Below are positions 4,839-59,382 of a stretch of DNA of 64,000 nt, piece after piece. The stretch is taken from positions 3,351,001 through 3,415,000 of the forward strand of contig NZ_CP107913.1 of assembly GCF_036014115.1 (NCBI RefSeq), read 5' to 3'. Below the pieces are notes generated by a model that was not told the origin of the DNA, searched no databases, and worked only from the letters and a program-made list of their open reading frames with translations. Each line of letters begins with the position of its first letter. Position 1 is the stretch's first letter. The translations under genes were made by a program, and so were the position numbers. Source of the stretch: Streptomyces sp. NBC_00448. GTDB taxonomy: Bacteria; Actinomycetota; Actinomycetes; Streptomycetales; Streptomycetaceae.

Positions 4839-6281
4839 TCAGCTCTTGTCGGCCTCGGCGGAGTCCGCGGCCTCGGATGCCTCGGGGGCGTCCTCGCCGG
4901 CCTCAGCGGCCTCGGGGGCGTCCCCGTCGGCGGCCTCAGCGGTGGCCTCGTCCTCGTCGTCCTCCTCGTCGGACAGGTCGACGACCTCGCCGTTGCTGTC
5001 GGTGACCTTGACGGCCTCGACGACGACGGCCAACGCCTTGCCGCGGGCCACCTCGCCGACCAGAAGCTGCACCTGGTTGCCCTCGACGACGGCCTGCGCG
5101 AACTGCTCGGGGGACATGCCGGAGGACTGCGCGCGGCGCATGAGGTGCTCGGTCAGCTCCTCCTGGTTGACCGACAGCTTCTCGGTCTTGACCAACTCGT
5201 CCAGGATGAACTGGGTCTTGATGCCCTTGACCGCCTGCTCGGAGACCTCCGCGTCGAACTCCTCGCGGGTCTTGCCCTCACGCTCCAGGTACGTGTCCCA
5301 GTTCAGGCCGAGCGCCGGGAACTGGTGGTGCTCCAGGTTGTGGGTGCGCGTCTCGATCTCGCTCTCCAGCAGCTTCTCCGGGATCGGGACCTCGGTCAGC
5401 TCGATGAGCGCGTCCAGCACCTTCTCCTGGGCCTGGGTGGCCTGGTCGTAGGACTTGATCCGCTCAAGGCGCTTGCGGGAGTCGGCCCGCAGCTCCTCCA
5501 GGGTGTCGAACTCGGACGCGAGCTGCGCGAACTCGTCGTCCAGCTCGGGCAGTTCGCGGGCCTGGACGTCGGTGACGTCGACCTTGACCTCGGCCTCCTG
5601 GCCGGCGCCGGTGCCGCCGCTCAGCGAGGAGGTGAAGGTGGCGCTGCCACCCTTCTCCAGGCCGGTGACGGCCTCGTCGATGCCGTCGAGGAGCTGGCCG
5701 GAGCCGATGGTGTAGCTGACGCCGGTGGCGACGCCGTCGTCCAGCACGTTGCCGTCGACCGACGCCTGCAGGTCGACCACGACCACGTCGCCCTCGGCGG
5801 CGGCGCGCTCGACCGGCGTGGTGGTCGCGAAGCGGTCGCGCAGCTGCTCCAGCGAGGTGTCGACGTCCTCCTCGGGCACCTCGACGGCGTCCACGGTGAC
5901 CTCGATGCCGGTGTAGTCCGGGATCTCGATGGTCGGCCGGATCTCGACCTCGGCGGTGAACTTCAGCTCGTCGCCGTCGTTGAACTCGGTGATGTCCACG
6001 TCGGGCTGGCCGAGCACGCTCTCGGAGAGCTCACCCTCGGTGACCGCCTCCGTGTAGAACTTCGGCAGCGCCTCATTGATGGCCTCTTCGAGGACCGCGC
6101 CACGGCCGAACCGCTGGTCGATGACGCGCGCAGGGATCTTGCCCTTGCGGAAGCCCGGCACCGTGACCTGCTGGTTGATCTTCTTGTACGCCGCGTCGAG
6201 GCTGGGCTTGAGCTCCTCGAAGGGCACCTCGACAGTGAGTCGAACCCGGGTCGGGTTCAGAGTCTCGACGGCGCTCTTCAC
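4839..6281 (-). CDS. tig: trigger factor, ribosome-associated chaperone and peptidyl-prolyl isomerase
   Basis: 480 residues. The start GTG at 6281 gives the conserved [20 protein letters not shown] and follows AAGGAG. The ribosome-binding signature GFRKGKIP is at about residues 43-50; then comes an FKBP-type isomerase domain (about 150-245) and the helical SurA-like chaperone arms. The last 50 residues are a highly acidic Glu/Ala/Asp tail typical of streptomycete trigger factors. It folds nascent chains at the exit tunnel, and its place just before clpP1 joins folding and degradation functions. A minus-strand TAGGAT at 6372-6367 is a plausible -10 about 85 nt upstream. Confidence 0.97.
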
Positions 6282-6467
6282 GGTTGGGTCTCCTTGGGGG
6301 CTTTACGTTGATGGGGGCCACTCACTTGCGCGCGATCGGTGCCGCGCGTCGGGTCGCCGACCGCCCATCCTACCGGTAGTGCCAAACGCCGCGGACGGGG
6401 TCGATCCCGATCCGCGGCGCGCTCGCCGTCCTCCCATCGCGCCGTCGCGCGACGGCCACGTAACTGC

Positions 6468-6544
6468 TGGTCGGGGTGGCCGGATTCGAACCGACGGCCT
6501 TCCGCTCCCAAAGCGGACGCGCTACCAAGCTGCGCCACACCCCG
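6468..6544 (-). tRNA. tRNA-Pro (anticodon TGG)
   Basis: Read on the minus strand it starts CGGGGTG and its acceptor strand pairs with CACCCCG. The D-arm (GCGCAGCTTGGTAGCGC) and the T-arm with GGTTCGAATCC are complete. The anticodon stem TCCGC/GCGGA encloses TTTGGGA, giving anticodon TGG. The 3' CCA is encoded (6468-6470). Confidence 0.97.
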
Positions 6545-6655
6545 CTGGTGCGACACGTAGAGTACATGCCTCCGTACGCCCGGGCAGCCCGTATTCACGC
6601 CCGCCGCGGAGCCGGTTCGACCGGCTACCATGCGGTGTGCCAGAATCTTGGCGTC

Positions 6656-29978: not shown

Positions 29979-31406
29979 TCACGTGTGGGGGCGGTTGCCC
30001 TTCTCCTGCTTGGGGAAGCTCTGGTCGGCGCCCGGGAGCGTCGGCTTGGGGAGGGTGGCGACCTCCTGCTCGGCCTCGGCCAGTTGCTCGGCGGTGTTGT
30101 CGGGCAGGCGCGGCGGCTTCCGCGTCGTGTCGGAGAAGCGGAACGCGGAGGTGAGGTCGCCGAAGGTGCGGCGGCGCCACTGCGAGATGTTGGGCTCCTC
30201 GACCCCGGTGAAGCGCTCCAGGAACCGCAGCGACGAGGTGTGGTCGAACGCCTCGCTCGCTACCCAGCCGCCGACCGTCCACGGCGAGATGATGATCGAC
30301 GGCACCCGGAAGCCCGCGCCGATCGGCAGCCCGTTGATGAACTCGTCCGGCGTGCCGGCCTTGGGGGTGGGCGGCACCACGTGGTCGAAGAGGCCGTCGT
30401 TCTCGTCGTAGTTGAGGATGAACGCGGTCTTCGCCCACACCTTCGGGTTGGACGCGATCGCCTCGATCTTGGAGGCGACGAAGTCCGCGCCGGCGGCCGG
30501 CAGGTAGTCCGGGTGCTCGGACTGGTAGCTGGTGGGCAGAATCCACGACACGGTCGGCAGCCGGTCGTTGCGGGCGTCGTCCTCGAAGGTGCCCTCGGGC
30601 TGGAAGACCATCGCCCGGTCGTGCAGCGGCTCGCCCGGCTTGGCGTCCTGGAACTGCTGGAACTCCGACAGCATGTTGGTGCCGTAGTTGTCGGTCTCCT
30701 GGTAGACCCGCCAGTCCACGCCGGCCGTCTGCAGCCGCTCCGCGTAGGTGGTCCAGCGGTACGGGCTCGGCGCCACGTTGCTGATGATCGGGCCGCCCTT
30801 GGTGCCGCCCGGGTCGACCGTGCCGGTCATCCAGTACAGCCGGTTCGGCCAGGTCGGGCCCATCATCGAGCAGTAGTAGTTGTCGCAGATGGTGAACGTC
30901 TCGGCCAGCGCGAACTGGAACGGGATGTCCTCGCGCGTGTAGTAGCCCATCACGTAGGGGCCGTTGGCGCCGTCGGCCGCGCGGTGCGCCGGCAGCCACT
31001 GGTCCATCGCGCCGCCGTTCCACGCCTGGTGCTGCACCGCGTAGGCGTGGCTGGTGGAGGGGATCGCCTGGGCGCTGGTGCTCTTGGTGTCCAGGTGGAA
31101 GGGGAGCGTGTAGCCGTCGGGGTTCTCGGCGTCCGGCTGGTAGAAGACCGAGCGGCCGGTGGACAGCCGCTTGGCGTGTGGGTCGTTGAAGCCGCGCACG
31201 CCGGACAGGGTGCCGAAGTAGTGGTCGAACGACCGGTTCTCCTGCATCAGCATGACCACGTGCTCGATGTCGCGCAGCGAACCGCTGCGCGGCGGGCCGG
31301 CGGCGACCGCCTTCTGCACGCTCGGCGGAAGCAGCGCCAGCGCGGCCGCGCCGCCCACCACTCCAGCCGTCGATCCGAGGAGTCTGCGTCGAGTCAACTC
31401 GGCCAT
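29979..31406 (-). CDS. Tat-exported phosphoesterase / phospholipase C family (copy 1)
   Basis: 475 residues. Twin-arginine signal LTRRRLLGSTAGVVGGAAA, then the phosphoesterase domain of the non-haemolytic phospholipase C / AcpA type: IEHVVMLMQENRSFDHYFGT with the metal and nucleophile site, GPTWPNRLYWMTGT, TAFILNYDENDGLFDHVVPP, and SIIISPWTVGG, each a family landmark. Start ATG at 31406 follows GGAGGGA. It should hydrolyse phosphate esters outside the membrane. A PHO-box-like repeat lies about 95 nt upstream. A paralogue is encoded at 57626-59314. Confidence 0.9.
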   Translation of the reverse strand: MAELTRRRLLGSTAGVVGGAAALALLPPSVQKAVAAGPPRSGSLRDIEHVVMLMQENRSFDHYFGTLSGVRGFNDPHAKRLSTGRSVFYQPDAENPDGYTLPFHLDTKSTSAQAIPSTSHAYAVQHQAWNGGAMDQWLPAHRAADGANGPYVMGYYTREDIPFQFALAETFTICDNYYCSMMGPTWPNRLYWMTGTVDPGGTKGGPIISNVAPSPYRWTTYAERLQTAGVDWRVYQETDNYGTNMLSEFQQFQDAKPGEPLHDRAMVFQPEGTFEDDARNDRLPTVSWILPTSYQSEHPDYLPAAGADFVASKIEAIASNPKVWAKTAFILNYDENDGLFDHVVPPTPKAGTPDEFINGLPIGAGFRVPSIIISPWTVGGWVASEAFDHTSSLRFLERFTGVEEPNISQWRRRTFGDLTSAFRFSDTTRKPPRLPDNTAEQLAEAEQEVATLPKPTLPGADQSFPKQEKGNRPHT

Positions 31407-51890: not shown

Positions 51891-52889
51891 TCAGGTGGTG
51901 GTGAGGAGTTGGAGGGTGTCGATCACGCGGTTGGAGAAGCCCCACTCGTTGTCGTACCAGGCGACGACCTTGATGTGGCGGCCGTCGACGCGGGTGAGGG
52001 CGGAGTCGAAGATGGCGGAGGCGGGGTTGCCGGTGATGTCGGAGGAGACGAGGGCGTCCTCGGAGTACTCGAGGACGCCGGCGAGCGGGCCCTGCGCCGC
52101 GGTGCGGTAGGCCGCCAGGACGTCCTCGCGGGTGACATCGCGGGAGACGGTCGTGTTGAGCTCGACGATCGAGCCGACCGGGACCGGCACGCGGATCGAG
52201 TCGCCCGAGAGCTTGCCGTCGAGGTCGGGGAGGACCAGGCCGATCGCCTTGGCGGCGCCGGTGGTGGTGGGCACGATGTTGACGCCGGCGGCGCGGGCCC
52301 GGCGGGGGTCGCGGTGCGGGCCGTCCTGGAGGTTCTGCTCCTGCGTGTAGGCGTGCACCGTCGTCATGAAGCCGTGCTCGATACCGGCGAGGTCGTGCAG
52401 GACGGCGGCGAGCGGCGCGAGCGCGTTGGTGGTGCAGGAGGCGTTCGAGACGATGGTGTGCAGGGCCGGGTCGTACGCGTCGGTGTTGACCCCGAAGGCG
52501 AGGGTCACGTCGGCACCGTCGGACGGCGCGCTGACCAGGACCTTCCGGGCACCCGCGTCGAGGTGGGCGCGCGCGGCCTTCGCGGAGGTGAACCGGCCGG
52601 TCGACTCCAGCACGATGTCGACACCGAGGTCGGCCCACGGCAGCTGCGCCGGCTCGCGCTCGGCCAGCACCTTGATGCGGCGGCCGTCCACCACGAGGAC
52701 GTCGCCGTCGACGCTCACCGGGCGGCCGAGCCGGCCGGAGGTCGAGTCGAAGGCGATCAGGCGGGCGAGGGCGGCCGGCTCGGTGAGGTCGTTGACGGCC
52801 ACGACCTCCAGGTCGGTGTCCCGTTCGAGCAGCGCGCGCAGCACGTTGCGCCCGATGCGGCCGAATCCGTTGATGGCGATGCGGGTCAT
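51891..52889 (-). CDS. gap: glyceraldehyde-3-phosphate dehydrogenase
   Basis: 332 residues. Oxidises glyceraldehyde 3-phosphate with NAD and phosphate in glycolysis. NAD site INGFGRIGRNVLRAL, active-site cysteine in VSNASCTTNALAPL, histidine in VHAYTQEQNLQDGPHRD, and C-terminal WYDNEWGFSNRV are intact. The residue after NGFGRIGRNVLRALLERDTD region is typical for NAD preference. ATG at 52889 (MTRIAINGFG). A GlxA/AraC-type regulator gene lies upstream on the same strand; intergenic 52890-53111 has short CACCCGG repeats only. Confidence 0.96.
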   Translation of the reverse strand: MTRIAINGFGRIGRNVLRALLERDTDLEVVAVNDLTEPAALARLIAFDSTSGRLGRPVSVDGDVLVVDGRRIKVLAEREPAQLPWADLGVDIVLESTGRFTSAKAARAHLDAGARKVLVSAPSDGADVTLAFGVNTDAYDPALHTIVSNASCTTNALAPLAAVLHDLAGIEHGFMTTVHAYTQEQNLQDGPHRDPRRARAAGVNIVPTTTGAAKAIGLVLPDLDGKLSGDSIRVPVPVGSIVELNTTVSRDVTREDVLAAYRTAAQGPLAGVLEYSEDALVSSDITGNPASAIFDSALTRVDGRHIKVVAWYDNEWGFSNRVIDTLQLLTTT

Positions 52890-53111
52890 GAGTGTGTCCC
52901 CAGTTCCTGAAGTCTCTTCGCGTTCGCCACCCAGGTTCGCGCGCGGCGGCGTCGTACGGCGTAGGCCCGAGCGCCACGGTTCGCAAGGATCGCGCCACGC
53001 GCACTCCACAGGCGTCCCGCACCCGGTCACACCCGCGCCGCAGCAGGTCACGCCCGCGCCGCACCCGGCCACACCCGGCCATCAGGCGTCCCGCACCCGC
53101 CCCGGACCCCG

Positions 53112-54074
53112 CTACTCGCCGCGCGTGAACGTACGCCGGTACTCGCTCGGCGTCGTCCCCAGCGTGCGCTGGAAGTGCATCCGCAGGTTCGCCCCCGTGC
53201 CCAGTCCCACGTCCGCCGCGATCTGCTCGACGCTCCGCTCGGACCGTTCCAGCAGCTCGCGCGCCACGTCCACCCGGGCCCGCATCACCCACTGCATCGG
53301 CGTGTACCCGGTGTCCTCGATGAAGCGGCGCGAGAACGTACGGGGCGACACCGCCGCATGCCGGGCCAGCACGTCGAGGGTGAGCGGCTCGCCGAGCCGG
53401 CGCAGCGCCCACTCGCGGGTGGCGGCGAACCGCTCCCCCAGCGGCTCGGGCACGCTGCGCGGCACGTACTGCGCCTGGCCGCCGCTGCGGTACGGGGCCG
53501 CCACCAGGCGCCTGGCCGCGTGGTTCGACGCGGCCACCCCCAGCTCGCGGCGCAGCACGTGCAGGCACAGGTCGATCCCCGAGGCGGCGCCGGCCGACGT
53601 CAGCACGCTGCCCTCGTCCACGAACAGGACGTTCTCGTCGACCCGGACCCGCGGATGCTTCGCCGCGAGCGCGCGGGTGTAGTGCCAGTGCGTGGTGGCC
53701 CGCTTCCCGTCGAGCAGGCCGGTGGCGGCGAGCGCGAACGCGCCGGTCGAGATCGCGGCGAGCCGCGCGCCCCGCTCGTGGGCCGCGATCAGCGCATCGA
53801 CGACGGCCCGCGGCGGGTCCTCCCGGTCCGGGAAACGGTAGCCGGGGATGAAGACGATCTCGGCCCAGCCGAGCGCGTCCAGGCCGTCGGCCACGTGGTA
53901 CGACAGCCCGTCGCCCCCCGCGACCAGCCCGGGCGCGGCACCGCACACCCGTACCTCGTACGGCATGCTCGCGCGGGTCGAGAAGACCTGCGCGGGAATC
54001 CCGACGTCGAGCGGCTTGGCCCCTTCGAGCACGAGGACGGCGACGCGATGCAGGTGGGAGGCGGGCACGGGCAC
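53112..54074 (-). CDS. GlxA-family transcriptional regulator (DJ-1/PfpI plus AraC HTH)
   Basis: About 320 residues. N-terminal DJ-1/PfpI-like domain (about 5-180: RVAVLVLEGAKPLDVGIPAQ, AAISTGAFALAATGLLDGKR, THWHYTRALAAKHP) joined to a C-terminal AraC-type double HTH (about 215-320: LDVLARHAAVSPRTFSRRFI, VEQIAADVGLGTGANLRMHF, TTPSEYRRTF). In GlxA proteins the nucleophile-elbow cysteine is usually lost; here it is ISTGA, so ligand binding rather than catalysis. The start is uncertain: GTG at 54074 or 54068, neither with a clear ribosome site. May control the adjacent gap gene. Confidence 0.88.
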   Translation of the reverse strand: MPVPASHLHRVAVLVLEGAKPLDVGIPAQVFSTRASMPYEVRVCGAAPGLVAGGDGLSYHVADGLDALGWAEIVFIPGYRFPDREDPPRAVVDALIAAHERGARLAAISTGAFALAATGLLDGKRATTHWHYTRALAAKHPRVRVDENVLFVDEGSVLTSAGAASGIDLCLHVLRRELGVAASNHAARRLVAAPYRSGGQAQYVPRSVPEPLGERFAATREWALRRLGEPLTLDVLARHAAVSPRTFSRRFIEDTGYTPMQWVMRARVDVARELLERSERSVEQIAADVGLGTGANLRMHFQRTLGTTPSEYRRTFTRGE

Positions 54075-54399
54075 CAGGGTAAGCGGCGGCGCCGGGGCGA
54101 CGGCCGACCCGCGCGCGCCGCGCCGGACCGGGCCGAGCCGGCCGAGGCCGGGCAGAGTCGCGGCAGGCCGCCCCCGGCCGAACCCGGCCGAACCGCACGC
54201 GCCGCACCACCCGGAGCCACGCCGCGCCACACCACGCCGAGTCGGCCCCGCCAACCCCCGTACCGCACCGCCGACACGCACCCCAAACCGGCAGAACGGG
54301 CGTTATTCGTAGGGCGGCTGACGACTGTTCACACAGGCGTCATCATCCCGCCCGAAACGATCCGCGCGGAATCCGTTGCCCTGCACATCAATAAGGGCC
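54075..54399. other. intergenic region between GlxA regulator and NHL protein genes
   Basis: 325 nt. The left part is very GC-rich with CCGGCCGA repeats and looks non-coding. The right part carries PHO-box-like units (54316-54348) and, 4 nt before the ATG, AAGGG. Confidence 0.5.
54316..54348 (+). promoter_or_regulatory. candidate PHO box upstream of the NHL-phosphoesterase operon
   Basis: Three contiguous 11-nt units, GGCTGACGACT, GTTCACACAGG and CGTCATCATCC, with the middle one close to the PhoP unit GTTCACC and weak matches on both sides. About 55-85 nt upstream of the ATG. Confidence 0.4.
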
Positions 54400-57300
54400 A
54401 TGATCTCTCACTTCAAGGTCGGCTGGAGAACCGTGGCGGCAGTCGCCGCGGCGCTGACCGTCCTCGGCCTCGCAGGGGCCGACGCCGAAGGCAGTACCGC
54501 CACCGCGGCGACCACCGGCCAGCGGTACTCCGCCGGCTGCCCGGCCGCGGACGTGGTGACTCCCGCCCTGAACAGCAATCTGATCGCCAACCCCGGCGCC
54601 GAGGACTTCACCGCGGTCACCTCGCTCGGCGCACCGGCCGGGGACACGCAGGACGTCCCCGACTGCTGGGAGGCGTCCTCTCCGATGAACGCGCCGGGCG
54701 CGGTCCTGGAGTCGACCTCGTCGTCGGCTCCCGGCCAGACCGGCAGCCGCACCTTCTACGGCGGCTACGACTACGACTCCCCGCAGGTCTCGATCGTGGG
54801 CGTCACCACCACGGCCACCCAGATGATCGACGTCAGCCCGCTGGACGCGGGCGGCAAGTCGTTCACGCTGACCGGCGCGATCGGCGGCTACACCACCCAG
54901 AGCGACTACGCCACCGTCACCGCCGCGTTCCAGGACGCCGACGGCGCCACCCTCGGCTCCGCGGCCCTGGCCCCGGTCAACGCCGCCCAGCGCGGCAACA
55001 TCACCAGCCTGATTCCGGAAGCGGCGGCCGGCACGGTCCCGGCCGGCACGAAGAAGATCTTCGTCACCGTGGCGTCGACCGGCGTCAGCGCCGGCTACGG
55101 CATCGACGGCCGGGCCGACAACCTGAACCTGACGATCGCCCCGAGCGATTCGGGCCAGCACTACACCGCACCCTGCCCGGCCGCCGACCAGGTCACCCCG
55201 GCGCTCAACGCCAACCTGATCGCCAACCCCGGCGCCGAGGACCACACCCCGGTCACCTCGCTCGGCGCGCCGGCCGGCGACGACCAGACCGTCGCCGACT
55301 GCTGGACCAGCGCCTCCCCGCTCGACGCACCCGACGGCACGCAGGAGTCGGCGCCCTCGACCTCACCCGGCGTCACCGGTGACCGGGTCTTCTACGGCGG
55401 CTCGAACCCCGACGGCGTCTCGGCCGCGGGCATGGTCACCAGCGGCACCCAGCTCGTCGACGTCGGCTCGCTGCACGCGGACGGGCAGCCGTACAAGCTG
55501 ACCGGCCAGGTGGGCGGCAGCGCGTCGCAGGGCGACTTCGCACAGGTCATCGCCACGTTCGAGGGCACGGACGGCGCGACTCTCGGCACGGCGTCCATCG
55601 GCCCGGCCACCGCGGCCCAGCGCGACAACACCTCCGCGCTGCTCTCGGACGGCACCTACGGCACGATCCCGGCCGGCACCCAGAAGGTCCTGGTCACGAT
55701 CATCACGGCGGCCGTCGACGACGACCGCGACAGCGACGGCGCGGCCGACAACCTGAACCTGACCATCGGCCAGAAGTCGGTCGGCCAGACCTACACGGCG
55801 CCCTGCCCGGCTGCCGACCAGGTCACCCCGGCGCTCAACGCCAACCTGATCGCCAACCCCGGCGCCGAGGACTACACCGCGGCGACGGCGCTCGGCGCCC
55901 CGCTGGGCGACGACCAGACCGTCGCCGACTGCTGGACCAGCGCCTCCCCGCTCAACGCACCCGACGGCACGCAGGAGTCGCGGGCGTCGACGTACCCCGG
56001 CGTCACCGGCAGCCGGGTCTTCTACGGCGGCACGAACCCCAGCACCGTCTCGATCCCGGGCATCGCCACCACCGGCACGCAGACCATCGACGTCGGCTCG
56101 CTCGGCACGGGCAGCCAGCCGTTCAAGCTCGCCGGCGACCTCGGCGGCTACTCGACGCAGAGCGACTACGCGACCGTCACGGCCACGTTCGAGGACGCCA
56201 AGGGCGCCACCCTCGGCGCGGGCATCATCGGCCCGGTCACCGCGGCCCAGCGCAACAACGTCTCCAGCCTGGTCCACCAGGCGTGGTACGGCACGGTCCC
56301 GGCCGGCGCCGCGAAGATCCTCGTCACGGTGGCCACGGTCGGTGTCAGCAGCGGCGCCAACAGCGACGGCACGGCCGACAACCTGAGCCTGACCATCGGG
56401 TCGGGCGCGGTGCCGTCGGGTCCGGTCCTCCAGACGATGCCGTACGCGTCGGTCGGTGACATTCCGGGCACCCACGTGGACCCGGGCACCGGCGCCGTCG
56501 TCCCCAACGTCACGCCGGGCTCGCTGTACCGGCCCGCGGGCGTGTCCGTCGGCGGCAACTCCGCGCAGGGGACGCAGGCGAAGGCCGACGTCCGGGCGGA
56601 GCTGACCAGCGTCGGCGACGGCTCGGTGTACGTCTCGAACACCGGCGACAACGTGGTGGCCAAGCTGCGCAACGGCGACACCGCGATCATCGCCGGCTCC
56701 CTGGAGGACAACGGGGAGAAGGGCGACCGCGGCAAGGCCACCGACGCGACGCTGTACCAGCCGGCCGGCACCGCGGTGGACGCGAGCGGCGACGTCTTCA
56801 TCGCGGACAGCGGCGACAACGTGGTCCGCGAGATCACCCCGGACGGGCTGATCCGGCGGTTCGCCGGCACCGGGACCGCAGGCCGCAGGACCTCCTCCAG
56901 CGCGCTGTCGACCCAACTCGACGGCCCCGCGGCGGTGGCGGTCGACGCGGCGAGGAACGTGTACGTCTCCGACACCCACAACAACCGGGTGGTCGAGGTG
57001 TCCTCGAAGGGGAAGGTCGTCCGGGTGATCGGCACCGGCAGGGCCGGGTACGCCGGAGACGGCAAGGCGGCCACGCGGGCGCAGCTGAACCAGCCGAACG
57101 GGCTGGCGCTGGACGCGAAGGGCAACCTCTACATCGCGGACTCGGCCAACAACGTGATCCGCCGGGTGGACGCGAGGACCGGGACCGTCACCACGGTGGC
57201 CGGCAACCACGCCGCGGCCAAGGCGAGCGACGGGCTCGGCGGGTTCGCCGGCGACGGCGGCCCGGCCACCGCGGCACGGCTCAACGACCCGCAGGGCGTG

Positions 57301-57594
57301 ACCGTCGACGGCGCGGGCGACCTGTTCGTCGCCGACACCTTCAACAACGCGATCCGGCAGGTCACCCCGGACGGGACCATCACCACCGTGGTGAACTCCT
57401 CGGCCGCGCCGGGCGGGGAGAGCAGCGGCGCGGCGCCGGCCGCCTCGAAGCTCAACACCCCGATCGCGGTCGCGGTGGACCTGTCCACCCACCTGCTGTA
57501 CATCGCCGACACGCACAACAACGCCGTCGCCCAGGTGCTCGGTGTCGCCCAGTCCGGCGCCGCGGCCGGCCCGGTGGCCCCCGCGAAGTCCTGA
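54400..57594 (+). CDS. secreted protein with three tandem beta-sandwich modules and a C-terminal NHL beta-propeller
   Basis: 1064 residues. A Sec signal peptide (about 1-33, HFKVGWRTVAAVAAALTVLG) is followed by three homologous modules of about 210 residues starting at residues 40, 252 and 462. Each has PAAD.VTPALN.NLIANPGAE, DCW, FYGG, GATLG, AAQR.N and ends DG.ADNL.LTI, like a carbohydrate-binding jelly roll. Residues 690-1055 hold five or six NHL repeats (FIADSGDNVVREI, YVSDTHNNRVVEV, YIADSANNVIRRV, FVADTFNNAIRQV, YIADTHNNAVAQV), a six-bladed propeller. No wall anchor. It begins the unit with the phosphoesterase 31 nt downstream. Wall or glycan binding is inferred, not shown. Confidence 0.8.
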   Translation: MISHFKVGWRTVAAVAAALTVLGLAGADAEGSTATAATTGQRYSAGCPAADVVTPALNSNLIANPGAEDFTAVTSLGAPAGDTQDVPDCWEASSPMNAPGAVLESTSSSAPGQTGSRTFYGGYDYDSPQVSIVGVTTTATQMIDVSPLDAGGKSFTLTGAIGGYTTQSDYATVTAAFQDADGATLGSAALAPVNAAQRGNITSLIPEAAAGTVPAGTKKIFVTVASTGVSAGYGIDGRADNLNLTIAPSDSGQHYTAPCPAADQVTPALNANLIANPGAEDHTPVTSLGAPAGDDQTVADCWTSASPLDAPDGTQESAPSTSPGVTGDRVFYGGSNPDGVSAAGMVTSGTQLVDVGSLHADGQPYKLTGQVGGSASQGDFAQVIATFEGTDGATLGTASIGPATAAQRDNTSALLSDGTYGTIPAGTQKVLVTIITAAVDDDRDSDGAADNLNLTIGQKSVGQTYTAPCPAADQVTPALNANLIANPGAEDYTAATALGAPLGDDQTVADCWTSASPLNAPDGTQESRASTYPGVTGSRVFYGGTNPSTVSIPGIATTGTQTIDVGSLGTGSQPFKLAGDLGGYSTQSDYATVTATFEDAKGATLGAGIIGPVTAAQRNNVSSLVHQAWYGTVPAGAAKILVTVATVGVSSGANSDGTADNLSLTIGSGAVPSGPVLQTMPYASVGDIPGTHVDPGTGAVVPNVTPGSLYRPAGVSVGGNSAQGTQAKADVRAELTSVGDGSVYVSNTGDNVVAKLRNGDTAIIAGSLEDNGEKGDRGKATDATLYQPAGTAVDASGDVFIADSGDNVVREITPDGLIRRFAGTGTAGRRTSSSALSTQLDGPAAVAVDAARNVYVSDTHNNRVVEVSSKGKVVRVIGTGRAGYAGDGKAATRAQLNQPNGLALDAKGNLYIADSANNVIRRVDARTGTVTTVAGNHAAAKASDGLGGFAGDGGPATAARLNDPQGVTVDGAGDLFVADTFNNAIRQVTPDGTITTVVNSSAAPGGESSGAAPAASKLNTPIAVAVDLSTHLLYIADTHNNAVAQVLGVAQSGAAAGPVAPAKS
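54517..56402. repeat. three in-gene direct repeats of about 630 bp
   Basis: Units 54517-55152, 55153-55782 and 55783-56402. Units 2 and 3 are nearly identical over long stretches (for example 55279-55350 and 55909-55980 differ by one base), so they were duplicated or converted recently. Confidence 0.85.
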
Positions 57595-57625
57595 CCCGGC
57601 CCTCACGAGACGAAGAAGAGAGACG

Positions 57626-59314
57626 ATGAGCAACACCGCTTCCGAACAAGCGGGTTCGGCCCGCTCGGGTGCCGCCCGCACGGGTTCGGCCCACTCCGGT
57701 TCCGCCCGCACGGGTTCGGCCCACTCCGGTTCCGCCCATTCCGGTTCCGCCCGCTCGGGCATGTCCCGCCGCCGGTTCATCACCAGTGCGGCGACGCTGG
57801 CCGGCGCCGCCGGTGCGGCCGGCGTGCTTCCGGAGAGCCTGGCGAAGGCCGCGGCCGCGAGCCCGGCCAAGGGCAGCCTGTCCCAGGTCAAGCACGTCGT
57901 GTACGTGATGATGGAGAACCGGTCGTTCGACCACTACTTCGGCACCTTCCCCGGCGCCCGCGGGTTCAGCGACCCGACGGCCATCAGGCTGCCGAACGGC
58001 GACCCGGTCTTCAAGCAGCCCGACCCGGCCAACCCCGACGGCTACCTCGAACCGTTCCACATGTCCACCATCAGCACCGGCGCGGCCGCGATACCGTCGC
58101 TGTCGCACGACTGGCGCGACCAGCACGCCTCGTGGAACCACGGCGCGATGGACGGCTGGATGACCACCCACCTCGCCTCGGACGGCGAGGTCAACGGCTC
58201 CTACACCATGGGGTACTTCACCCGCGAGGACATCCCGTTCCACTGGGCGCTCGCCGAGTCGTTCACCCTGCTCGACAACTACCACTGCTCGATCCTGGGC
58301 CCGACGGACCCGAACCGGCTGGTGTGGATGTCCGGCACCAACGACCCGCAGGGCAAGTTCGGCGGACCGGTGCTGGAGACCGTGACGCCGAACCCGATGA
58401 CGCACCCGTCGGCGGCGGAGATCCTGTACGACGCGGGGTACAGCGTCAAGACGTACTTCTCCGGCGCGACCAGCGGGTTCAACGTGTTCTCGTGGTTCGC
58501 CAACTTCCAGAACCGGACCACCCTGCCGGCCGCCCTGTACAACTCCGTCATGAGCGGCGGCACGCTGTACGGCGACGGCACGCCCGGCCGGGTCGGCGAC
58601 CCCACCAGCCCGACCGCGGCGGCGGACCCGAACCTCGGGTTCGAGGAGGACTGCGCCAACGGCGTTCTCGCGGACGTGTCCTGGCTGTACATGCCGAGCG
58701 CGGCCGACGAGCACCCGCCGAACCTCCCCGCGGCCGGCGCGCAGTACCTCGCGTCGAAGCTGGAGGCGCTCGCGGCCAACGAGGACCTGTGGAACTCGAC
58801 CGTGTTCGTGCTCAACTACGACGAGAACGACGGGTTCTTCGACCACGTGCCGCCGCCCGTCCCCCAACCGCACAAGTACCCCGAAGAGTTCGTGACCGTG
58901 GCCTCGCCGAAGGGCACCCCGGGCGGCGGGCTGCCGGTCGGCGCCGGCTTCCGGGTGCCGTGCATCATCGTGTCCCCCTGGACCGTGGGCGGCCGGATCT
59001 TCTCCGAGGTCTCCGACCACACCTCCGGGCTCCAGTTCATCGAAACCCTCACCGCGGCCGGCGGCCTGTCCGGCAACGGGCCGGTCACGTTCACCCCGAT
59101 CAGCAAGTGGCGCCGCCGCACCTTCGGCGACTTCACCGGGGCGCTGCGCCTGCACGACCGCAAACCGGCCCCGAGCAACCCGCAGTTCGAGCCCGGCACC
59201 ACGGCGGCCAACCTCGCCGCCCAGACCACGGCCGCGGCCCAGCCGATGCCGCCCCGCCCGGGAGCGACCCAGACCATGCCGAAGCAATCCCACGGCCCCG
59301 GCACCAAGGACTGA
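57626..59314 (+). CDS. Tat-exported phosphoesterase / phospholipase C family (copy 2)
   Basis: 562 residues. The twin-arginine motif SRRRFITSAATLAGAAGAAG starts at residue 47, unusually far in, because residues 10-44 are seven 5-residue units (GSAHS/GSART). The enzyme domain has the same landmarks as copy 1: VKHVVYVMMENRSFDHYFGT, GPTDPNRLVWMSGT, VFVLNYDENDGFFDHVPPP, CIIVSPWTVGGRIF. It is longer than copy 1 by an insertion around residues 290-345. ATG at 57626 follows AAGAGAG; an ATG at 57761 just before SRRR is an alternative without a ribosome site. A strong terminator follows. Confidence 0.88.
   Translation: MSNTASEQAGSARSGAARTGSAHSGSARTGSAHSGSAHSGSARSGMSRRRFITSAATLAGAAGAAGVLPESLAKAAAASPAKGSLSQVKHVVYVMMENRSFDHYFGTFPGARGFSDPTAIRLPNGDPVFKQPDPANPDGYLEPFHMSTISTGAAAIPSLSHDWRDQHASWNHGAMDGWMTTHLASDGEVNGSYTMGYFTREDIPFHWALAESFTLLDNYHCSILGPTDPNRLVWMSGTNDPQGKFGGPVLETVTPNPMTHPSAAEILYDAGYSVKTYFSGATSGFNVFSWFANFQNRTTLPAALYNSVMSGGTLYGDGTPGRVGDPTSPTAAADPNLGFEEDCANGVLADVSWLYMPSAADEHPPNLPAAGAQYLASKLEALAANEDLWNSTVFVLNYDENDGFFDHVPPPVPQPHKYPEEFVTVASPKGTPGGGLPVGAGFRVPCIIVSPWTVGGRIFSEVSDHTSGLQFIETLTAAGGLSGNGPVTFTPISKWRRRTFGDFTGALRLHDRKPAPSNPQFEPGTTAANLAAQTTAAAQPMPPRPGATQTMPKQSHGPGTKD
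57653..57757. repeat. seven 15-bp tandem repeats in the signal region of phosphoesterase copy 2
   Basis: 105 bp of GGTTCGGCCCACTCC / GGTTCCGCCCGCACG-type units encode GSARS, GAART, GSAHS, GSART, GSAHS, GSAHS, GSARS. Copy-number change keeps the frame. Confidence 0.85.
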
Positions 59315-59350: not shown

Positions 59351-59382
59351 CGCAGGCCGTCCGCCCCACCGGACGGCCTGCG
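59351..59382. terminator. bidirectional terminator
   Basis: A perfect 13-bp stem (59351-59363 with 59370-59382) and 6-nt loop between the plus-strand phosphoesterase and the minus-strand PadR-methyltransferase gene. Confidence 0.85.

What the first reader, a model, noticed from the sequence alone, without database searches (positions are those of the whole stretch)
54316..59314. Secreted triple-module NHL propeller cotranscribed with a Tat phosphoesterase
The two genes are 31 nt apart behind PHO-box-like units. The first product has three recently duplicated jelly-roll-like modules and a beta-propeller; the second is an exported phosphatase or phospholipase. A wall- or glycan-bound scaffold that positions a phosphate-releasing enzyme would be a new arrangement. 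It is the strongest candidate here for an undescribed system.
Basis: inference. Interest (0 to 1): 0.65.

Follow-up and report, generated by a model that had tools for sequence, protein, structure and literature searches.

The report
Secreted phosphatase with a partner protein
Some soil actinobacteria encode, side by side, a secreted phosphate-releasing enzyme and a large secreted protein built from three copies of a previously unnamed domain plus a beta-propeller; in other species the same domain is fused to, or overlaps the gene of, secreted phosphatases, so the big protein most likely helps the enzyme find or hold its substrate when phosphate is scarce.

Summary
Gene 1 (54400-57594) is a Sec-type secreted protein with three ~207-residue all-beta modules and an NHL propeller. 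Gene 2 (57626-59314), 31 nt downstream, is a Tat-exported PF04185 phosphoesterase of the phospholipase-C/PlcH branch, with its catalytic motifs intact but without the duplicated C-terminal domains usual in that family. A GTTCAC element sits exactly 72-73 nt before the start codon in 13 orthologues and resembles a PHO box.

The pair is real but narrow. Fourteen genomes have gene 1 (11 of 35 in the genus, 3 in a sister family), and all 14 have gene 2 directly downstream; the surrounding genes differ.

The new point is the module. Pfam does not recognise it. Outside this pair, 36 of 39 module proteins carry a PF04185 phosphoesterase domain in the same chain. The other three are single-module genes that precede or overlap a Tat-exported PhoD phosphatase. 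One protein carries module, PF04185 and a propeller in a single chain. The predicted fold is of the carbohydrate-binding jelly-roll kind.

Best reading: a phosphate-scavenging enzyme whose accessory (targeting) domains moved to a separate co-expressed subunit. Binding, ligand and PhoP control are inferred, not shown. The modules are old, not 'recently duplicated'.

The parts
54327..54348 (+). PHO-box-like 11-nt direct repeat GTTCACACAGG CGTCATCATCC, 73 nt before the start codon of gene 1
   Evidence: GTTCA(C/T) at exactly -72/-73 in 12 of 13 orthologues, GTTCG in the other; highest two-unit score in the 64-kb window; same pattern before a PitH-like transporter gene and another PF04185 gene in this genome
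54400..57594 (+). gene 1: secreted protein with three modules and an NHL propeller (1064 aa)
   Evidence: ORF and start; Pfam; 73-80% identity over the whole protein in ten genus orthologues other than G016
54400..54510 (+). Sec-type signal sequence (MISHFKVGWRTVAAVAAALTVLGLAGADA...)
   Evidence: read from the sequence; basic n-region and hydrophobic h-region kept in orthologues
54520..55140 (+). module 1
   Evidence: module HMM E 5e-88
55156..55773 (+). module 2
   Evidence: module HMM E 4e-83
55786..56403 (+). module 3 (structure predicted: all-beta, pLDDT 79.6, pTM 0.83)
   Evidence: module HMM E 2e-91; AlphaFold2; Foldseek
56533..57540 (+). NHL beta-propeller, about six blades
   Evidence: PF01436, PF25021; PDB matches to teneurin-like, SOQ1, Pizza and PknD propellers; strand pattern in the better part of the full-length model
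57626..59314 (+). gene 2: Tat-exported PF04185 phosphoesterase, phospholipase-C branch (562 aa)
   Evidence: PF04185 6.7e-92; TIGR03396 426 bits, below its 580 cut-off; PDB phospholipases C 9gy2/9gye
57651..57759 (+). 15-nt tandem repeat (7.3 copies) extending the part before the Tat motif
   Evidence: not seen in the orthologues' N-termini
57764..57781 (+). twin-arginine motif SRRRFI
   Evidence: read from the sequence; SRR.F kept in orthologues
57887..59047 (+). PF04185 catalytic domain with MENRSFDHYFG, GPTDPNR, DENDGFFDHV and SDHTS motifs
59351..59382 (+). 13-bp hairpin just after gene 2, possible end of the transcript
   Evidence: fold energy -28.7 kcal/mol; no T-run, so not called by the terminator scan

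Best explanation
A two-gene phosphate-scavenging unit. When phosphate is low, PhoP probably activates the promoter before gene 1 (inferred). The three-module propeller protein is exported by Sec, and the folded metal-type phosphoesterase by Tat (inferred from the signal sequences). The modules are accessory domains that serve secreted phosphoesterases: in relatives they are fused to the enzyme or encoded in an overlapping gene (shown by sequence). Here they have been tripled, joined to an NHL propeller and moved to a separate subunit. That subunit most likely binds a surface, glycan or phosphate-bearing polymer with its modules and the enzyme, or a second ligand, with its propeller, so that the enzyme acts where substrate is dense (inferred). 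The enzyme lacks the duplicated C-terminal domains of its family, which fits accessory functions being supplied in trans.
For: Pair kept in 14 of 14 genomes with gene 1, with different neighbours around it, so the pair is the unit that is kept. In G016, gene 1 has drifted to ~46% and gene 2 to ~71% identity, yet they stay paired. The gap is short, 26-53 nt in 13 of 14, with a kept ribosome-binding site in most. 36 of 39 other module proteins carry PF04185; seven more from a class-wide search do too. Single-module genes precede or overlap a Tat PhoD phosphatase gene. One protein has module + PF04185 + beta-propeller in one chain. The module fold resembles carbohydrate-binding domains: FBA/Fbs1, CBM16, a hyaluronan-binding module. 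The PHO-like element is at fixed spacing. Catalytic motifs are intact in nearly all orthologues. Precedent: PlcH of Pseudomonas aeruginosa is an exported heterodimer with PlcR, and PlcR is needed for its secretion (PMC2673038).
Against: No interaction, ligand or induction has been measured. One species (G019) keeps an intact gene 2 after losing nearly all of gene 1, and G023 pairs its gene 2 relative with a short stub of two propeller repeats and no module; so gene 2 can persist without the modules. The Foldseek matches are moderate (TM-scores 0.5-0.6), and this fold is also used for things other than sugar binding. The second PHO unit is degenerate in most orthologues. The full-length model is poor, so no interface could be seen.
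Confidence: 0.55

Rival explanations
1. Gene 1 product is an export or folding helper for the enzyme, like PlcR for PlcH, rather than a targeting subunit.
For: PlcR is co-encoded with a PF04185 phospholipase C, forms a heterodimer with it and is needed for its Tat secretion (PMC2673038). Gene 1 precedes and is co-oriented with a Tat substrate. G023 keeps only a short exported propeller stub beside the enzyme.
Against: Gene 1 has its own Sec-type signal and would meet the enzyme only outside the membrane. In relatives the module is part of the enzyme chain, not a removable helper. G019 keeps the enzyme without gene 1. Sequence likeness to PlcR was not tested.
Confidence: 0.15
2. The propeller is itself an enzyme (lactonase-, esterase- or phytase-like) and the two proteins perform successive steps on one organophosphate or glycan-phosphate substrate.
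For: Above-cut-off Pfam matches to SGL (42.7 against 26.3 bits) and Phytase-like (29.8 against 27.6) in the propeller. The propeller of the three-in-one protein matches a lactonase family.
Against: The better matches are plain NHL and teneurin propellers, which mostly serve as binding domains (role from general knowledge). Catalytic residues of the propeller were not identified.
Confidence: 0.15
3. The two genes are only co-regulated by phosphate and work independently in phosphate scavenging; neighbourhood reflects shared transcription.
For: A shared promoter element is enough to keep an operon. Some genomes keep only the enzyme.
Against: The module is physically fused to PF04185 in many other proteins and once together with a propeller, which points to joint action rather than mere co-regulation.
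Confidence: 0.15

Closest known systems
Phosphocholine-specific phospholipase C family (PlcH type, TIGR03396 / PF04185)
   Same: Tat export, PF04185 catalytic domain and motifs; match to model positions 2-492 of 688; phmmer match to solved phospholipases C 9gy2 and 9gye
   Different: Scores 426 bits against a cut-off of 580; lacks the duplicated C-terminal domains; has a co-encoded module-propeller partner
PlcHR heterodimer of Pseudomonas aeruginosa
   Same: A PF04185 phospholipase C encoded and exported with a partner protein (PMC2673038)
   Different: The partner here is a large Sec-type module-propeller protein
PhoD alkaline phosphatase (PF09423) with an upstream single-module gene in Streptomyces-family genomes
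   Same: A module gene precedes or overlaps a Tat-exported phosphatase gene
   Different: Different enzyme family, one module, no propeller
Module-PF04185 fusion proteins of Streptomycetales and other Actinomycetes
   Same: Same module, same enzyme superfamily
   Different: One chain, one or two modules, a PF04185 domain matched only from profile position ~105 on, no NHL propeller
Carbohydrate-binding beta-sandwich domains (FBA/Fbs1, CBM16, CBM4, CBM22)
   Same: Predicted fold of the module is nearest to these
   Different: TM-score about 0.5-0.6 and 10-18% identity; no sugar-binding site identified

Membership tests
PF04185 phosphoesterase superfamily (gene 2) | PF04185 domain above the curated cut-off | tested here: met
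   308.8 bits against 23
PF04185 phosphoesterase superfamily (gene 2) | Catalytic motifs (ENRSFDHY, GPT.PNR with the threonine, DENDGFFDH, DHTS) | tested here: met
   aligned with 9gy2; intact in nearly all orthologues
Phosphocholine-specific phospholipase C (TIGR03396) | Score above the curated cut-off and duplicated C-terminal domains | tested here: not met
   426 of 580 bits, match ends at model position 492 of 688; no C-terminal domain in Pfam
Phosphocholine-specific phospholipase C (TIGR03396) | Hydrolysis of phosphatidylcholine | not testable with these tools
   needs an enzyme assay
NHL-repeat beta-propeller | NHL repeats above cut-off, propeller strand pattern | tested here: met
   PF01436 83.2 against 20 bits, five repeats; strands in model
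Known carbohydrate-binding module families | Sequence match to a curated family | tested here: not met
   single modules give no Pfam match up to E = 1; only fold-level likeness
Pho regulon (PhoP-controlled) | Two GTTCACC-type direct repeats, CA pairs 9 bp apart (definition in PMC7244524) | tested here: met
   54327-54348; the second unit is degenerate in most orthologues
Pho regulon (PhoP-controlled) | PhoP binding and induction by low phosphate | not testable with these tools
   needs EMSA and expression data
Exported proteins | Sec-type signal on gene 1 product, Tat motif on gene 2 product | tested here: inconclusive
   read from the sequence and kept in orthologues; no dedicated signal-peptide predictor was available

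The most novel reading that the evidence does not exclude
The module is a new domain family that recognises a phosphate-bearing or phosphate-adjacent polymer (for example a wall glycan or teichoic-acid-like polymer) and delivers several unrelated secreted phosphatases (PF04185, PhoD) to it, either in cis, as a small co-encoded protein, or, as here, as a tripled multivalent scaffold carried on a propeller: a phosphate-harvesting counterpart of polysaccharide-degrading scaffolds.
Probability: 0.2. Interest if true: 0.72.

Novelty: new variant of a known kind. Interest (0 to 1): 0.45.

Why it matters
Secreted phosphatases and phospholipases of soil actinobacteria are mostly viewed as isolated enzymes. 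A domain that recurs with two unrelated phosphatase families, by fusion, overlap and operon, gives a concrete handle on how such enzymes may be targeted, and an unnamed family that can be cloned and assayed at once. It also suggests a role for a class of large exported propeller proteins that sequence annotation alone leaves without function.

Tried and rejected
Metallophos (PF00149) as the enzyme family: searched in the own genome only (15 copies); gene 2 gave no match to it.

Recent duplication of the modules: rejected. Modules cluster by position (orthologous identity 76-80%, paralogous 56-70%); only the N-terminal halves of modules 2 and 3 stay closer (81%), perhaps by gene conversion or constraint.

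Wide distribution across actinobacteria: rejected for the pair (4 of 294 genomes in an even sample of the order), accepted for the module with other partners.

Plasmid carriage: only one distant single-module gene, no pair.

Structure of the whole of gene 1: pLDDT 52.8 with seven close sequences, too poor to use beyond the propeller. No complex was predicted; no such tool was offered.

Sigma-70 promoter and intrinsic terminator scans: nothing beyond chance in this GC-rich region.

Literature: no paper held combines phospholipase C, Streptomyces and NHL repeat, or PF04185, phospholipase C and actinobacteria, or phosphoesterase, NHL repeat, secreted and Actinobacteria; a broader search gave two unrelated papers. 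Sola-Landa 2008, the primary PHO-box paper, is not held.
Full report
What is there. Gene 1 (54400-57594, 1064 aa) begins with a Sec-type signal, carries three ~207-residue modules and ends in an NHL propeller. Gene 2 (57626-59314, 562 aa) starts 31 nt later, with a GAAGAAGAGAGA ribosome-binding site in the gap that most orthologues keep. It has an SRRRF Tat motif and a PF04185 domain (6.7e-92). Its nearest solved relatives are phospholipases C 9gy2 and 9gye. It matches TIGR03396 (phosphocholine-specific phospholipase C) over model positions 2-492 of 688 at 426 bits, below the cut-off of 580, because the C-terminal part is missing. The literature says that nearly all PLC members of this family carry duplicated C-terminal domains (PMC2673038). 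The catalytic motifs, including a GPT threonine that I take to correspond to Thr178 of PlcH (the residue mutated in PMC2673038), are intact in nearly all orthologues. A 13-bp hairpin follows gene 2.

Is the pair conserved. The genome is a 9.65-Mb chromosome; the named close relatives are mostly Actinacidiphila species. Gene 1 is present in 11 of 35 genomes of the genus and in three genomes of another family of the order. In all 14, gene 2 lies directly downstream on the same strand. The gap is 26-53 nt in 13 and 129 nt in one. The other genes around the pair in the window were not found beside it elsewhere. In an even sample of 294 genomes of the order only four have gene 1, so the pair is narrow. 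Two exceptions are informative. G019 keeps an 84%-identical gene 2, but gene 1 is reduced to a remnant. G023 has a 61%-identical gene 2 preceded by a short exported protein of two propeller repeats that keeps the same C-terminal tail (GPVAPA). The divergent G016 still has the pair although gene 1 is only about 46% identical.

What the modules are. No Pfam model recognises a single module. A profile built from the three modules and iterated finds the same domain in many other proteins. Of 39 such proteins outside the gene 1 family, 36 also contain PF04185; the module usually precedes the enzyme domain, and in some proteins a second copy follows it. The remaining three are single-module genes followed by a PhoD phosphatase gene with a Tat signal; in a class-wide search another such gene overlaps phoD by four bases. 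Seven further class-wide hits also carry PF04185. One of them, in genome G420, is a single 924-residue protein with module, PF04185 and a propeller: the same three elements as in the window, in one chain, though with a different propeller family. This is the strongest evidence for joint action, and it does not depend on the neighbourhood of the two window genes. Three other single-module genes found class-wide (L158-L160) were not checked for a PhoD neighbour.

Fold of the module. AlphaFold2 with 21 aligned modules gives an all-beta model (pLDDT 79.6, pTM 0.83). The nearest solved structures are sugar-binding FBA domains (Fbs1), family 16 carbohydrate-binding modules, a hyaluronan-binding module and phage capsule-degrading tailspikes, at TM-scores near 0.5-0.6. 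The full-length model is poor outside the propeller.

Age of the triplication. Modules from the orthologues other than G016 form position-specific clades (orthologous identity 76-80%, against 56-70% between positions). The triplication predates the split, or transfer, between the two families. 'Recently duplicated' is not correct, although the N-terminal halves of modules 2 and 3 stay unusually alike.

Regulation. Upstream regions of 13 orthologues share TGACGAnTGTTCAC...GTC, with the GTTCA core exactly 72 or 73 nt before the start codon (G007 has GTTCG). In the window the repeat GTTCACACAGG/CGTCATCATCC fits a published description of a PHO box, two GTTCACCC-like repeats with 9 bp between the CA pairs (PMC7244524). 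Its crude two-unit score exceeds that of all 635 other 200-nt stretches of the window. The pattern occurs 29 times in the genome against 5 for a reversed control. Among the other sites are one before a PitH-like phosphate transporter gene (identified by eye from its sequence) and one before another PF04185 gene. This makes PhoP control likely (about 0.7 in my judgement). It is not shown.

How it most likely works. Shown by sequence: co-oriented, closely spaced, always paired, both with export-type signals, module associated with phosphoesterases elsewhere. Inferred: PhoP-driven co-expression; separate export by Sec and Tat; contact between propeller or modules and the enzyme outside the cell; binding of the modules to a surface or polymer; release of phosphate near the cell. 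The enzyme's missing C-terminal domains and the partner's extra modules fit a division of one chain's tasks between two. Rivals are a PlcR-like secretion helper, a second enzyme, and mere co-regulation.

Novelty. Secreted PF04185 phospholipases, PhoD phosphatases, PHO boxes, NHL propellers and accessory binding domains are all known. The module family has no Pfam model, and I found no description of it or of the pair in the library held; that is weak evidence of absence. I rate it a new variant of a known kind.

Noticed in passing
window 30201-31268 (-) and whole genome: The genome holds 14 PF04185 phosphoesterase matches, one of them elsewhere in this window; 12 of 14 well-known control genomes have none.
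   Followed up: no
window 57651-57759: A 15-nt minisatellite (7.3 copies) encodes SGSARTGSAHSG-type repeats before the Tat motif of gene 2; orthologues have a short plain N-terminus there.
   Followed up: partly
L168 178-2952 (-), genome G420: Single protein with module, PF04185 and a YVTN/lactonase-like propeller.
   Followed up: yes
L096 near 6000-6626 (-), genome G019: Gene 1 reduced to a small remnant directly before an intact gene 2.
   Followed up: yes
L097 8723-11890 (+), genome G023: Tandem PF04185 genes with a short exported two-repeat NHL stub between them that keeps the gene 1 C-terminal tail.
   Followed up: partly
L102 6488-6494 (+), genome G021: An in-frame TAG interrupts module 1 of the otherwise intact gene 1 orthologue: real pseudogenisation or sequencing error.
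   Followed up: no
L157 1399-2082 and 2079-3557 (+); L045 3848-4426 and 4423-5988 (+): Single-module gene overlapping phoD by four bases; the plasmid copy is annotated 'phosphoesterase' although it holds only the module.
   Followed up: yes
window 51893-53072 (-) and 53115-54281 (-): A GAPDH gene and a DJ-1/AraC-type regulator lie divergently upstream of gene 1; they were not found beside the pair in other genomes.
   Followed up: partly
L111, L116, L126, L132 (own genome): Other PHO-like repeats precede an iron-uptake-like (EfeO-type) protein, a HAD-type hydrolase and two secreted proteins of unknown function, judged by eye.
   Followed up: no
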